A DNA stretch of 64,000 bases from Mitsuokella jalaludinii DSM 13811 (GTDB lineage: Bacteria; Bacillota; Negativicutes; Selenomonadales; Selenomonadaceae): NCBI RefSeq assembly GCF_000702905.1, contig NZ_JNKR01000005.1:1-64000 (forward strand). The letters are read 5' to 3'. This document shows, in pieces, positions 5,033-15,328 of this stretch (position 1 is the stretch's first letter; each line of letters starts with the position of its first letter). The translations under genes were made by a program, and so were the position numbers. The notes under the pieces are model-generated. The model had not been told where the DNA came from. It made no database searches and worked only from the letters and a program-made list of their open reading frames with translations.

Positions 5033-6157
5033 ATGGACGCACGTCAGAGGCTCAGGGAAGCCAGGCGCATCGTCGTCAAAGTCGGCACGAGTACGCTTGC
5101 CCATGATACGGGCATGCTCAACCTCTACCGCATCGACCATCTCCTGCGGGAGTTGGCCGACCTCATGAATGAGGGGCGCGAGATCATCCTCGTCTCCTCG
5201 GGCGCCATCGCGGCGGGCCTCAGCAAGCTCGGCCTCGCGAAGAAGCCGGACTCCATTCCGGAAAAGCAGGCGGTTGCCGCCATCGGCCAGGGCGTGCTCA
5301 TGCATATCTACGAGAAGTTCTTCGCCGAGTACGGCAAGACCATCGGCCAGGTGCTCCTGACGAAGGAGAACGCCGTGCGTCACCACCAGTACCGCCACTC
5401 GCGCGATGCGCTGCTTGCCCTGCTCGCGATGGGGGCCGTGCCAGTCATCAATGAGAACGATGCCGTCGCCGTCGACGAGATCAAGATCGGGGATAACGAC
5501 AATCTCTCGGCGATGGTCGCGACGCTCGTCGATGCCGATGCGCTGATCATCCTCTCGGACATCGAGGGCCTCTACACGGCAAATCCGGCAACCCATCCAG
5601 ATGCCCGCCTCATCCACGAGGTCGAGGAGATCACGCCGGAGGTCATCGAGATGGCCGGCGGCGCGGGCTCCTCGCTCGGCACGGGTGGCATGGCGACGAA
5701 GCTGCAGGCCGCTCAGGTGGCCATGAGCGCCGGCGTCAACATGGTCATCGCCTCGGGCAGTGAAGAGGGCGCTTTGCGCCGCATCCTGCAGGGCGAGGAG
5801 GTCGGCACGGTCTTTGCCGCGCGCGAATCGCATCTGCGCGTGCGCAAGAGCTGGCTGGCCTTTGGCAAGCGGCTGCAGGGCGATCTCGTCGTCGATGCGG
5901 GCTGCGTCAAGGCGCTCGAAGGTGGTTCGAGCCTGCTGGCCGCCGGCATCAAGGCTGTCGACGGCGACTTCGAGGCCGGCAGCACGGTGCGCGTCCTCGC
6001 CGAGGACAACCGCGAGATCGCGCGCGGCATCGTCAACTACAATACAGAAGACCTCCGCCGGCTCATCGGCCACAAGACGGAGGACTTTGAGCATCTCGTC
6101 GCGGGCGCTGTCCACGAAGAGGTCATTCATCGGGATAACATGGTCCTGATGGTCTGA
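5033..6157 (+). CDS. proB: Glutamate 5-kinase
   Basis: ProB phosphorylates glutamate to gamma-glutamyl phosphate, the first and feedback-inhibited step of proline synthesis. The 374-residue protein has an N-terminal amino acid kinase domain (RRIVVKVGTS, VSSGAIAAG, NENDAVAVDEI, GTGGMATK) and a C-terminal PUA domain (about residues 285-365). The ATG at 5033 follows GGAGGG. It lies 16 bases after yhbY and 14 bases before proA, so the two proline enzymes are made together. Confidence 0.97.
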   Translation: MDARQRLREARRIVVKVGTSTLAHDTGMLNLYRIDHLLRELADLMNEGREIILVSSGAIAAGLSKLGLAKKPDSIPEKQAVAAIGQGVLMHIYEKFFAEYGKTIGQVLLTKENAVRHHQYRHSRDALLALLAMGAVPVINENDAVAVDEIKIGDNDNLSAMVATLVDADALIILSDIEGLYTANPATHPDARLIHEVEEITPEVIEMAGGAGSSLGTGGMATKLQAAQVAMSAGVNMVIASGSEEGALRRILQGEEVGTVFAARESHLRVRKSWLAFGKRLQGDLVVDAGCVKALEGGSSLLAAGIKAVDGDFEAGSTVRVLAEDNREIARGIVNYNTEDLRRLIGHKTEDFEHLVAGAVHEEVIHRDNMVLMV

Positions 6158-11262: not shown

Positions 11263-12306
11263 ATGAGACGTTATACGACACTCCTGCTGACAGCGTTCCT
11301 GCTGCTGGCCATCGTCATCGCTGGTTCTGCCTACCTCGCCGGCACCGGACACATCGACCACCGGACGAGAGAGCAGGAAATCACAGTCTTGACAACGCTG
11401 CCGGCGGAGGAAGCCGAGATCTTGTCACAGGCGTATGAGGACAGCTCTGGTGTCCACGTGACGTTTGTGCCGCTTTCTTCGGCAGATGTCCTCGAGCGCG
11501 CGAAGGCGCAGGCCGGTTCGCCGCAGAAGTCTGGCCCGGCGATGGTGCTGGCCGACTGGCAGACGCTCGGCCAGGCGTCGCGCAGCGGCTATCTCGTGCC
11601 GTACTTGTCGGAGCGCGGCGACATGGTCGCTGCAGCCTTCCGCCAGGATGACGGCTACTGGATGGGCGTCTGGTATGATCCCATCATCTTCTGCATCAAC
11701 AGGGACTACCTGATATCGCTGCACACAGACATCCCCGACACCTGGCAGGCGCTCGCAGACCAGGACGGGCGCATCGGCATCACGGATTTCATGGCCGCGG
11801 ATGCCTCCTCGAACCTGCTCTACGCGATGGATGCGGAATTCGGCGACGAGAAGACGCTGGAGCTCCTCGACAAGATCCATCCGCGCGTCGTGCAGTACGC
11901 CCGCTACCTCTCGAATCCCGTGCGCCAGGCCGGCATGGGAGAGGTCGACATCTCGATTGCCGTCGAGAGCGAGACGCTGCGCTACATCCACGACGGCTAC
12001 CCGCTGCAGATCATCTATCCGGCAGACGGCACGACGGCGTGGATCACCGGCACGGGCATCCTCGCGGGCAGCGGGGACAGAGAGCGGGGGCTCGCCCAGA
12101 ACTTTGCGGACTGGCTGCTCTCCGATGAGGCGCAGCTCGCCCTGCAGAGCCACAATTACTTCTTCGTGCCGACAAATCCGGGGACGATGGCCTACCAGTC
12201 CTTCCCCGGCAAGAATCTCACGCTTTTCACGCAGAACCCGCAGTTCTCGGCTCAGCAGAAGCACGACCTGCTCGACACGTGGGCGCGCGAGATCCGATTC
12301 AAATGA
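11263..12306 (+). CDS. ABC transporter solute-binding protein, orphan (iron-binding-protein-like fold)
   Basis: This 347-residue exported protein has an N-terminal hydrophobic signal or anchor (residues 7-28) without a lipobox, then a type II periplasmic binding protein fold: ITVLTTLPAEEAEILSQAYEDSSGV, MGVWYDPIIFCINRDYL, PDTWQALAD, and the C-terminal NFADWLLSDEAQ segment. The order resembles Fe(III)/phosphonate binding proteins of the FbpA/AfuA group. No permease or ATPase gene is adjacent, so substrate and partner are unknown. The TonB-free arrangement and the gene's place at the end of a housekeeping run suggest an accessory gene. Confidence 0.82.
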   Translation: MRRYTTLLLTAFLLLAIVIAGSAYLAGTGHIDHRTREQEITVLTTLPAEEAEILSQAYEDSSGVHVTFVPLSSADVLERAKAQAGSPQKSGPAMVLADWQTLGQASRSGYLVPYLSERGDMVAAAFRQDDGYWMGVWYDPIIFCINRDYLISLHTDIPDTWQALADQDGRIGITDFMAADASSNLLYAMDAEFGDEKTLELLDKIHPRVVQYARYLSNPVRQAGMGEVDISIAVESETLRYIHDGYPLQIIYPADGTTAWITGTGILAGSGDRERGLAQNFADWLLSDEAQLALQSHNYFFVPTNPGTMAYQSFPGKNLTLFTQNPQFSAQQKHDLLDTWAREIRFK

Positions 12307-12311
12307 TTGGC

Positions 12312-12338
12312 GAGGATGCCTTGCGGCATCCTCCTTTG
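12312..12338 (+). terminator. Intrinsic terminator after the solute-binding protein gene
   Basis: A perfect 9-bp stem GAGGATGCC/GGCATCCTC with loop TTGC is followed by CTTTGT. It lies 5 bases after the stop and ends the obgE-to-12306 transcript unit. Confidence 0.75.
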
Positions 12339-12371
12339 TATGGTTTGTGTGATTGCATCTACCAATACTAG

Positions 12372-12608
12372 GGAGCTTGCAGCTGGTTCGAGCGTCATCT
12401 GGCTGAACACGGTGCAAAGATCATTGTCGTCAACAACGAGGACCTCAGCCCGGAATGCGAGATGATCCAAGACCTAATCAGCATCATCCGTATGTTTTCC
12501 AACCGCATCCATGTGTTGCAGAAATACGAAGGGAAGCTGAAAGGAGATGAAACGGTTGCTCAGATCCTTCAAGACCGAACTCCGTCTCACCGAAAGCCAA
12601 AAGGATAA
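12372..12608 (+). pseudogene. tnpA: IS607-type serine recombinase TnpA, C-terminal remnant
   Basis: An open stretch without a start encodes about 78 residues that look like the end of IS607 TnpA (FERHLAEHGAKIIVVNN, the acidic E-D pair, DLISIIRMFSNRIHVLQKY). The N-terminal MerR-like and catalytic serine regions are absent, and a TAG lies immediately upstream in frame. It overlaps the tnpB start by about 60 bases, the normal IS607 layout. The element therefore cannot move by itself. Confidence 0.78.
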
Positions 12609-13755
12609 GATACGTCGGTCACTCGGTATCTGCCGCTTCCTCGCAAATCAGTACATCGCCCGCAACATCTGGCTGTACCGCCTGTATCAGCGCGGCGTCC
12701 TCGATGAGAAGCAGCGCCATTTCGTCACCGCCAATAACTTCGACAAGTACGTCAACCATGTACTAAAGAAGAAATTCCCTTGGATTGACCAGTGCGGGTC
12801 CAAGGCGCGCAAGAAGGTCCTCGTCAATGCGGAGCAGGCGTTCAAGCGCTTCTTCAAAGGACAGGCGCACTTCCCGCGCTTCAAGCGGAAAAACCAGCAG
12901 AACGTGAAGCTCTACTTCCCGAAGAACAATAAGGGCGACTGGACCATCTGGCGGCACAAGATCCAGGTCCCGACCATCGGCAAGGTACGCCTGAAAGAAT
13001 TGGGCTACCTGCCGCAGGGCGTGACCATCAAGAATGGGCATGTCTCCTATGAAGCGGGCCGTTACTACGTCTCGGTCACAGCTGAGATTGAGGAGACGAG
13101 CCGCTATAACAACGACTTGGAAGCATCGTACCATCCGCAGACGGATGGCATCGGTGTGGACCTCGGTGTCAAATCGCTTGCTATCGTCAGCGATGGCAGG
13201 ATTTTTGAGAATATCAATATGTCTTCCCGAGCCAGACGGCTCGAGAAACGGCTGAGAAGAGAGCAGAGGCGTCTCAGCTGCAAGTACGAGATGCGAAAGA
13301 AGAAAGGTGGGAGCACTGCTACTGCCTCTGCAAACATAGAGAAAAAGAAATTATCGGTACAGAGATTGCATCAGCGGTTGGCGAATCTGCGCCGCAATCA
13401 CGAGAATCAAGTCATCCATGCACTGGTGGAGCAAAAACCACGCTTCATCACAGTGGAAGACCTCAACGTGACCGGCATGATGAAGAACCGCCATCTCTCG
13501 AAGGCAGTGTCAGAGCAGCGCTTCTATTCCTTCCGCGAGAAGCTGCGGCGCAAGGCAGAGATCATCGGGATTGAATTCCGCATCGCGGACCGCTTCTACC
13601 CGAGTTCCAAGACCTGCCACGCCTGCGGGCATGTGCATAGCGGCCTGAAACTCAAAGACCGCACTTACGTCTGTCCTGCATGCGGCTACAAGGAAGACCG
13701 CGATTTGAATGCAGCGCTGAATCTGCGCGATACGAAGGACTATCGCATCGCCTGA
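12547..13755 (+). CDS. tnpB: TnpB, RNA-guided RuvC nuclease of the IS605/IS607 group
   Basis: This 402-residue TnpB appears full length. TnpB proteins are guide-RNA (omega RNA) nucleases ancestral to Cas12. The split RuvC residues look intact: D205 in GVDLGVKS, E304 in TVEDLNV, and D386 in the DRDLNAALNL motif. A zinc ribbon lies between the last two, with CHAC at 357-360 and CPAC at 376-379. The N-terminal helix-turn-helix-like part has KTELRLTESQ. GGAG lies just upstream of the ATG. Its transposase partner is broken, so TnpB is a stand-alone survivor here. Confidence 0.93.
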   Translation: MKRLLRSFKTELRLTESQKDKIRRSLGICRFLANQYIARNIWLYRLYQRGVLDEKQRHFVTANNFDKYVNHVLKKKFPWIDQCGSKARKKVLVNAEQAFKRFFKGQAHFPRFKRKNQQNVKLYFPKNNKGDWTIWRHKIQVPTIGKVRLKELGYLPQGVTIKNGHVSYEAGRYYVSVTAEIEETSRYNNDLEASYHPQTDGIGVDLGVKSLAIVSDGRIFENINMSSRARRLEKRLRREQRRLSCKYEMRKKKGGSTATASANIEKKKLSVQRLHQRLANLRRNHENQVIHALVEQKPRFITVEDLNVTGMMKNRHLSKAVSEQRFYSFREKLRRKAEIIGIEFRIADRFYPSSKTCHACGHVHSGLKLKDRTYVCPACGYKEDRDLNAALNLRDTKDYRIA

Positions 13756-13875
13756 TTCACGCTCGCGCATTTCATAAATGTACCGATGGCTAGTCGGAAA
13801 CAGGCCGTTGCCCTGCCGCGCAGGGAATATGGCCGACGCCTTTGGAGTGTACAAGAACTTGTGAGTAGTCTCAGG
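13690..13875 (+). ncRNA. Candidate omega RNA (guide scaffold) at the tnpB 3' end
   Basis: In TnpB elements the guide RNA scaffold spans the 3' end of tnpB and the right end, with the guide just outside. Here the region after the stop has clear hairpins: GTCGG (13793-13797) with CCGAC (13833-13837), CCCTG/CAGGG (13811-13825), and ACAAG/CTTGT (13851-13862). The guide would follow near 13870-13895. The 5' limit is arbitrary. This rests on position and visible pairing only. Confidence 0.5.
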
Positions 13876-13969
13876 CTTGCCTGGACAAAAGCATACACGA
13901 TGAAAAAGGAATATTTCTAGGCATAGATAATTTCTATGTTATTCTATGTTTTTAGTAGCAGGTATTTCA

Positions 13970-15328
13970 GTGAAAGCTGGTTTCATCAGTCTTGGCTGTT
14001 CCAAGAATCTCGTTGACACGGAGGTCATGCTCGGCATCCTCCAGCAGCACGGCATTGAGCTCACGGCCAACCCGGCCGAGGCCGACATCCTGATCGTCAA
14101 CACCTGCGCCTTCATCCAGTCGGCCAAGGAGGAGTCGATCACGACCATCCTCAACATGGCCGAGTACAAGGAGAGCGGTCGCTGCCGCAGCCTGATCGTC
14201 GCGGGCTGCCTCGGCCAGCGCTACAAGCAGGAGCTCTTAGACGAGATTCCCGAAGCCGACGCCATCATCGGCACGGGCGCCTGGGGCCGCATCATGGAGG
14301 CCGTCGAGGAGACGCTCAAGGGCCATCGCCTTGTCATTGCCGGCAAGGACGAAGCGCTCTACGACGAGCACACGCCGCGCATCACGACGACGCCTTCATA
14401 CACGGCTTACGTCAAGATTGCGGAGGGCTGCAACAACCGCTGCGCCTTCTGCGCCATCCCGTACATCCGTGGCGACTACCGCAGCCGCCGCATCGAGGAC
14501 ATCTGCGATGAGATCCGCCACCTGACGGAGAACGGCGTGCGCGAAGTCGTGCTGATCGCTCAGGACTCGACGGAGTACGGCCGCGACCTCTACGGCCAGC
14601 CGAAGCTCGCAAAGCTCCTGCGCGAGATCGTCAAGGTGCCGAAGCTCAAGTGGGTGCGCACGCTCTACAGCTACCCGAAGTACTTCAGCGACGAGCTCAT
14701 CGAGACGATCGCCAGCGAGCCGAAGATCTGCAAGTACGTCGACCTGCCGCTGCAGCACGCGCATGATGCCGTGCTGCGCAGCATGCGCCGTCCTGACACG
14801 CAGGAGGAGATGCGCGCGCTCATCCACAAGCTGCGCGAGCGCATCCCCGGCGTGACGATCCGCTCGACCTTCATCGTCGGCTTCCCGGGCGAGACGGATG
14901 CCCAGTATCAGACCTTGCGCAACTTCCTCGAGGAGATGCGCCTCGACAAGGTCGGCGTCTTCACGTACTCGCGCGAAGAGGGCACGCCGGCCTACGATAT
15001 GCCGAACCAGGTGCCGGAGGAGATCATGCAGGAGCGCTATCACGACCTCATGAGCCTGCAGTGCAAGATCTCCGAGGAGATCAACCAGTCGCTCGAAGGC
15101 AAGGAACTCGATGTCCTCATCGAGGGTCGCGACGAGGAGCAGCCGAACATCTCGGTCGGCCGCTCCTACCGCGAGGCGCCCGAGGTCGATGGCCAGGTCT
15201 ACGTCGAGAACGATGCGGACAGCAAGCCGGGCGACATCGTGCGCGTGCGCGTCCTGCAGGGCTTCACTTACGACGTCGTCGGCGAGCGCATTGACGGCGC
15301 AGAGAAGGGGAAGAAGGCAGCGGAATGA
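13970..15328 (+). CDS. rimO: Ribosomal protein S12 methylthiotransferase RimO
   Basis: RimO is a radical SAM enzyme that methylthiolates an aspartate of S12. The 452-residue protein has the UPF0004 domain (FISLGCSKNLVDTE, NTCAFIQSAKEES, GCLGQRY with its three Fe-S cysteines), the radical SAM motif CNNRCAFCAIP, and a C-terminal TRAM domain (ELDVLIEGRDEE onward). The start is taken as GTG 13970, which gives the family-type beginning VKAGFISLGC and has a weak GCAGGT site; an ATG at 13946 lacks one. The IS element sits just upstream and may have displaced the native promoter. Confidence 0.95.
   Translation: MKAGFISLGCSKNLVDTEVMLGILQQHGIELTANPAEADILIVNTCAFIQSAKEESITTILNMAEYKESGRCRSLIVAGCLGQRYKQELLDEIPEADAIIGTGAWGRIMEAVEETLKGHRLVIAGKDEALYDEHTPRITTTPSYTAYVKIAEGCNNRCAFCAIPYIRGDYRSRRIEDICDEIRHLTENGVREVVLIAQDSTEYGRDLYGQPKLAKLLREIVKVPKLKWVRTLYSYPKYFSDELIETIASEPKICKYVDLPLQHAHDAVLRSMRRPDTQEEMRALIHKLRERIPGVTIRSTFIVGFPGETDAQYQTLRNFLEEMRLDKVGVFTYSREEGTPAYDMPNQVPEEIMQERYHDLMSLQCKISEEINQSLEGKELDVLIEGRDEEQPNISVGRSYREAPEVDGQVYVENDADSKPGDIVRVRVLQGFTYDVVGERIDGAEKGKKAAE

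What the first reader, a model, noticed from the sequence alone, without database searches (positions are those of the whole stretch)
12547..13875. Stand-alone TnpB nuclease with a guide-RNA-like tail after loss of its transposase
All three RuvC acidic residues and both zinc-ribbon Cys pairs look intact while tnpA is a fragment. Hairpins after the stop codon fit an omega RNA. A TnpB that no longer serves its own transposon may have been kept for another role, such as regulation or defence, or may be recent wreckage.
Basis: partly seen in the sequence, partly recalled or inferred. Interest (0 to 1): 0.6.

Follow-up and report, generated by a model that had tools for sequence, protein, structure and literature searches.

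The report
Stranded TnpB in rimO's ribosome-binding site
This is a jumping-gene remnant that has lost its jumping enzyme but keeps an intact RNA-guided DNA cutter and guide RNA; it sits in the ribosome-binding site of the gene rimO, a known kind of element, and its relatives show the same preference for ribosome-binding sites.

Summary
In detail: an intact 402-aa TnpB (12547-13755) lies behind a tnpA remnant. It is not an unknown orphan. It belongs to the RAGATH-18 clade of IS607 TnpBs (Ren et al. 2024), with the diagnostic RAGATH-18 RNA at 13839-13911 (74 bits). The guide-RNA scaffold runs to 13961 and looks complete. The guide is 13962-13981, not 13870-13895. An empty site in Mitsuokella multacida shows the element inserted after GGGAG, inside the Shine-Dalgarno of rimO, so the guide is the rimO translation start. 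The left end and about two thirds of tnpA are deleted; a 93%-identical copy with complete tnpA sits elsewhere in the genome. Most likely this is a stranded selfish element whose nuclease could still cut uninterrupted rimO alleles; inert wreckage is the main rival. A host role has no support; pseudo tnpA is common in this family. An unexpected by-product: two of three right-end types insert 7-10 nt upstream of start codons far more often than equivalent motifs do (22/31 and 28/52, against 14-18%), so the nuclease's target-adjacent motif doubles as the ribosome-binding site. I found no paper saying this.

The parts
12312..12333 (+). terminator-like hairpin of the upstream solute-binding-protein gene (11263-12306)
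12371..12375 (+). GGGAG: left flank of the insertion, target-adjacent motif and 5' part of the original rimO Shine-Dalgarno
   Evidence: empty site ACTAGGGAGGTATTTCAGTGAAAGC in M. multacida; coordinates
12376..12608 (+). tnpA remnant (IS607 serine recombinase, last ~74 of 216 residues); left end and N-terminal part deleted
12547..13755 (+). tnpB, 402 aa, RuvC D205/E304/D384 and zinc ribbon intact
13756..13961 (+). guide-RNA (reRNA) scaffold: 5' flank with pseudoknot loop GCTA (13789-13792), RAGATH-18, 3' flank ending TAGCAG
13839..13911 (+). RAGATH-18 RNA (RF03064)
13962..13981 (+). predicted 20-nt guide GTATTTCAGTGAAAGCTGGT, covering the rimO start codon
   Evidence: right ends of sibling copies diverge exactly here; 20-nt guide per PMC11061315
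13970..15328 (+). rimO, GTG start at 13970, interrupted only in its ribosome-binding site
   Evidence: TIGR01125 535.6 bits, using the 13946 start; GTG start by comparison with M. multacida

Best explanation
A stranded copy of a RAGATH-18-type IS607 element. Shown from sequence: it inserted after GGGAG in the Shine-Dalgarno of rimO; its left end and most of tnpA were then lost, so it should no longer be excisable by TnpA even in trans; tnpB and the reRNA scaffold remain intact, with the rimO start as guide. Inferred: if transcribed, TnpB and its reRNA form a nuclease that cuts uninterrupted rimO alleles (TAM GGGAG plus a perfect match, as in M. multacida) but spares the filled allele, whose guide match is preceded by AGCAG. 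That would retain and spread the element by homing-like repair, a selfish function rather than a host one.
For: RAGATH-18 hit of 74 bits directly after tnpB, known to be the scaffold of this nuclease clade. 362-bit match over the full length to the solved ISFba1 TnpB, with TAM-contact residues K86, K89, N127, N128 kept. The empty site in M. multacida matches both flanks; its GGAG plus target stretch is perfect, while the only match in the own genome has GCAG. dN/dS about 0.1 among seven copies. The same truncated left junction and left flank occur at about 99% identity in a second strain, on a MAG contig.
Against: No expression or cleavage data. The left-end promoter is gone and no consensus promoter was found upstream. 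ISFba1 TnpB lost cleavage with any single change in AGGAG, so GGGAG may be poor, although relatives L142 and L155 appear to have used GGGAG. The window copy has a private R245C at a residue that contacts reRNA in ISFba1. Selection after the loss of tnpA could not be isolated, because copies recombine and the one comparison is a mosaic MAG contig.
Confidence: 0.6

Rival explanations
1. Inert wreckage: an immobile, unexpressed remnant whose tnpB is intact only because the loss is recent or because gene conversion with sibling copies keeps it fresh.
For: Left-end promoter lost, private R245C; tnpA decay is frequent; copies look mosaic.
Against: The truncated form is shared with a second strain that differs by about 1%, tnpB is open in both, and private changes in the window copy are 4 nonsynonymous to 6 synonymous.
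Confidence: 0.32
2. Exapted TnpB: the nuclease or its RNA now regulates rimO or acts in defence.
For: The guide covers the rimO start; insertion drops the predicted anti-SD pairing from -12.2 to -4.7 kcal/mol, so rimO translation is probably altered.
Against: The nuclease site is intact, unlike TldR repressors; a cutter aimed at its own gene start would damage the host if the TAM were restored. Neighbours are housekeeping genes. The insertion is absent from the two other Mitsuokella genomes' own rimO loci.
Confidence: 0.05
3. The truncated unit is still mobile, using a cryptic left end inside tnpA.
For: The remnant begins directly after the TAM; a second truncated copy in M. multacida (L042) also begins directly after TAGGGAG.
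Against: No copy of this truncated form at an independent site: the one candidate (MAG contig L039) carries the rimO-side left flank too and is a probable chimera.
Confidence: 0.03

Closest known systems
ISFba1 TnpB and the RAGATH-18-guided IS607 TnpB family (Ren et al. 2024, PMC11061315)
   Same: full-length homology (196 of 378 aligned positions identical), RuvC triad, TAM-contact residues, RAGATH-18 scaffold downstream of the ORF, scaffold ending TAGCAG, AG-rich TAM at the left end
   Different: tnpA and the left end are deleted here; TAM is GGGAG rather than AGGAG; a private R245C
IS200/IS605 TnpB (ISDra2; PDB 8h1j, 8bf8)
   Same: RNA-guided RuvC nuclease of similar size
   Different: only 122 bits; a serine-recombinase rather than Y1 tnpA remnant; the guide RNA lies outside the ORF; G-rich TAM
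TldR (nuclease-dead TnpB repressors)
   Same: TnpB-like protein without a transposase, guide near a gene start
   Different: all catalytic residues are present here; the guide is the element's own flank rather than a distant host gene

Membership tests
RAGATH-18 IS607 TnpB | RAGATH-18 RNA directly downstream of tnpB | tested here: met
   RF03064 74.1 bits at 13839-13911
RAGATH-18 IS607 TnpB | RuvC D/E/D and zinc ribbon | tested here: met
   D205, E304, D384 by motif; CxxC pairs visible
RAGATH-18 IS607 TnpB | AG-rich TAM abutting the left edge, guide abutting the right edge | tested here: met
   empty site in M. multacida; GGGAG, one base from AGGAG
RAGATH-18 IS607 TnpB | IS607 serine-recombinase tnpA upstream (not obligatory: about 20% of loci lack it) | tested here: inconclusive
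   remnant only; intact TnpA of sibling copy hits transpos_IS607, 224 bits over 110
RAGATH-18 IS607 TnpB | reRNA-guided DNA cleavage | not testable with these tools
   needs biochemistry
NCBIfam IS607_TnpB (NF038280, exception model) | score over curated cut-off | tested here: not met
   170 bits against 350; the broader guided_TnpB model is met (264 against 100)
TldR | loss of RuvC catalytic residues | tested here: not met
   catalytic residues intact

The most novel reading that the evidence does not exclude
RAGATH-18 IS607 elements are specialised for ribosome-binding sites: their TAM is the Shine-Dalgarno core, so their guides are mostly gene-start sequences, and tnpA-less copies such as this one persist by cutting the uninterrupted allele of the same gene (homing at the ribosome-binding site).
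Probability: 0.3. Interest if true: 0.62.

Novelty: new member of a known kind. Interest (0 to 1): 0.42.

Why it matters
The locus itself is an ordinary member of a known nuclease family. The by-product matters more: if the TAM of these compact nucleases is the Shine-Dalgarno, it explains where the elements land, why their insertions spare reading frames, and what their natural guides target. It also gives a clean natural test of whether TnpB without a transposase is kept by cutting empty alleles.

Tried and rejected
Guide at 13870-13895: rejected, it lies inside RAGATH-18. Truncated unit as a mobile minimal element: the MAG contig (L039/L047) seemed to show it at czcD, but its left flank is the rimO-side flank, its left ~750 nt are ~99% identical to the window and the rest 84-99%, while czcD is the MAG's own (78% to the window genome), so a chimeric contig is likelier. 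Selection after tnpA loss: only this contig shares the truncation, so no clean dN/dS. Plasmids and phages: no near copy. Viral-contig patterns for right ends: mostly chance matches. A group I intron in the TnpB-less siblings (L020 type) was suspected but Rfam gave no hit. A Clostridia-centred genome search failed for want of a handle.

Full report
Observation. The ORF 12547-13755 encodes a 402-aa TnpB with OrfB_IS605 and Cas12f1-like_TNB domains and passes NCBIfam guided_TnpB. Its best solved relative is ISFba1 TnpB (8iaz), matched end to end at 362 bits. Mapping residues gives D205 and E304 for the first two RuvC acids; the third is D384, placed by its EDR motif because the printed chain is numbered differently there. 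Upstream, the frame 12376-12608 reads the last 74 or so residues of an IS607 serine recombinase. Directly after tnpB lies RAGATH-18 RNA.

Identity. Ren et al. 2024 (PMC11061315) showed that RAGATH-18 is the core of the guide RNA of a clade of IS607 TnpBs, with TAM AGGAG or GAGGG, a scaffold that ends in a U182-A186/G187 stretch paired in a pseudoknot, and a 20-nt guide. In the window the scaffold ends TAGCAG at 13961; the loop GCTA at 13789-13792 is complementary to TAGC at 13956-13959 (my inference that this is their PK2). Three other RAGATH-18 copies lie in the same genome, and six and five in two other Mitsuokella genomes (named as M. multacida DSM 20544 and MAG SUG1706 by matching contig lengths). 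Right ends of sibling copies agree up to TAGTAGCAG and then diverge, which fixes the boundary.

Insertion site. M. multacida has the same gene order without the element: CCATACTAGGGAGGTATTTCAGTGAAAGC. The window reads ACTAGGGAG, then 12376-13961, then GTATTTCAGTGAAAGC. The element therefore split the rimO Shine-Dalgarno GGGAGG. The filled allele keeps AGCAGG, with predicted anti-SD pairing of -4.7 kcal/mol against -12.2 for the empty allele. The guide is the rimO start. In the genus genomes searched, GGAG plus this guide stretch is perfect only in M. multacida; the window genome has it once, with GCAG. The third genome has its own uninterrupted rimO with a different spacer.

The loss. Intact siblings have 216-222-aa TnpA and a left end with a promoter-like stretch directly after [A/G]GGAG. 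A copy with complete tnpA and 93%-identical TnpB lies elsewhere in the genome, inside a cas6 gene. In the window everything from the outer edge of the left end to about residue 142 of TnpA is gone, while the left flank is intact up to the TAM. One M. multacida copy (L042) shows a similar truncation, also starting directly after TAGGGAG. How the deletions came to start at the element's edge is not explained.

Persistence and selection. The same truncated junction with the same left flank occurs at about 99% identity on a MAG contig of another strain. That contig switches to about 84-99% identity inside tnpB and ends in the MAG's own czcD, so it is probably chimeric; only its left part is used here. 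Among seven copies dN/dS is 0.07-0.12 with or without intact tnpA. This is selection on the element family and cannot be assigned to the period after the loss. Private changes in the window copy are 6 synonymous and 4 nonsynonymous, one of them R245C at a reRNA-contact position.

Most likely working. Inferred: TnpB and reRNA, if expressed, cut uninterrupted rimO alleles and spare the filled one, because the base change in AGCAG destroys the TAM; the break is repaired from the filled copy. This is the retention model generally proposed for TnpB (PMC11061315). Against full confidence: no promoter was found, GGGAG may be a weak TAM, and nothing is known of expression. Inert wreckage is a serious rival.

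A rule seen on the way. In 93 distinct right-end junctions, from the RAGATH-18 matches in genomes of the order and from the relatives found, a start codon of an ORF of at least 60 codons lies 7-10 nt downstream in 22 of 31 junctions ending TAGCAG/TGGCAG and in 28 of 52 ending TAACGG/CAACGG, against 14% and 18% of matching motifs in the same DNA (Fisher p = 5e-12 and 5e-8), and in none of 10 ending TAGCGG. In a set outside the Selenomonadaceae, 11 of 16 lie 6-10 nt upstream, against 11% of controls. Left flanks read AGGAG, GGGAG, GGAGG or GAGG. Limits: right ends were found by regular expressions, ORFs are not annotated genes, some junctions are related copies, four doubtful junctions were dropped by hand before counting, the 6-10 range of the second set was chosen after seeing its rows, and the control does not remove selection against insertions inside genes. 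A search of open-access full text for TnpB with Shine-Dalgarno, or IS607, TnpB, target adjacent motif and ribosome binding site, found no paper that by its title and abstract makes this point (the hits were not read through); subscription papers were not searched.

Verdict. The locus is a new member of a known kind.

Noticed in passing
L018 (own genome C2:232000-241694), reverse strand: A complete IS607/RAGATH-18 element with intact tnpA interrupts a CRISPR cas6 gene after GGAGGAG.
   Followed up: partly
L020 about 5310-5784; L043; L044: A ~470-bp TnpB-less element carrying RAGATH-18 and a right end occurs in all three Mitsuokella genomes (98% and 89% alike), each with its own guide-like flank; possibly guided by TnpB in trans. 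Its 5' part is structured-looking but matches no Rfam family.
   Followed up: partly
L042 (M. multacida C4:52500-57500), about 1545: Second tnpA-truncated copy whose remnant also starts directly after TAGGGAG; its TnpB has a private D305Y next to the catalytic Glu.
   Followed up: partly
L172, L175, L176: Some right ends of the TAACGG type run into GGTTCAAGTCCC, a tRNA T-arm sequence, so tRNA genes may be a second kind of target.
   Followed up: no
own genome: Thirteen TnpB-like places of several subfamilies in one 2.4-Mb genome, some with stops or truncated.
   Followed up: no
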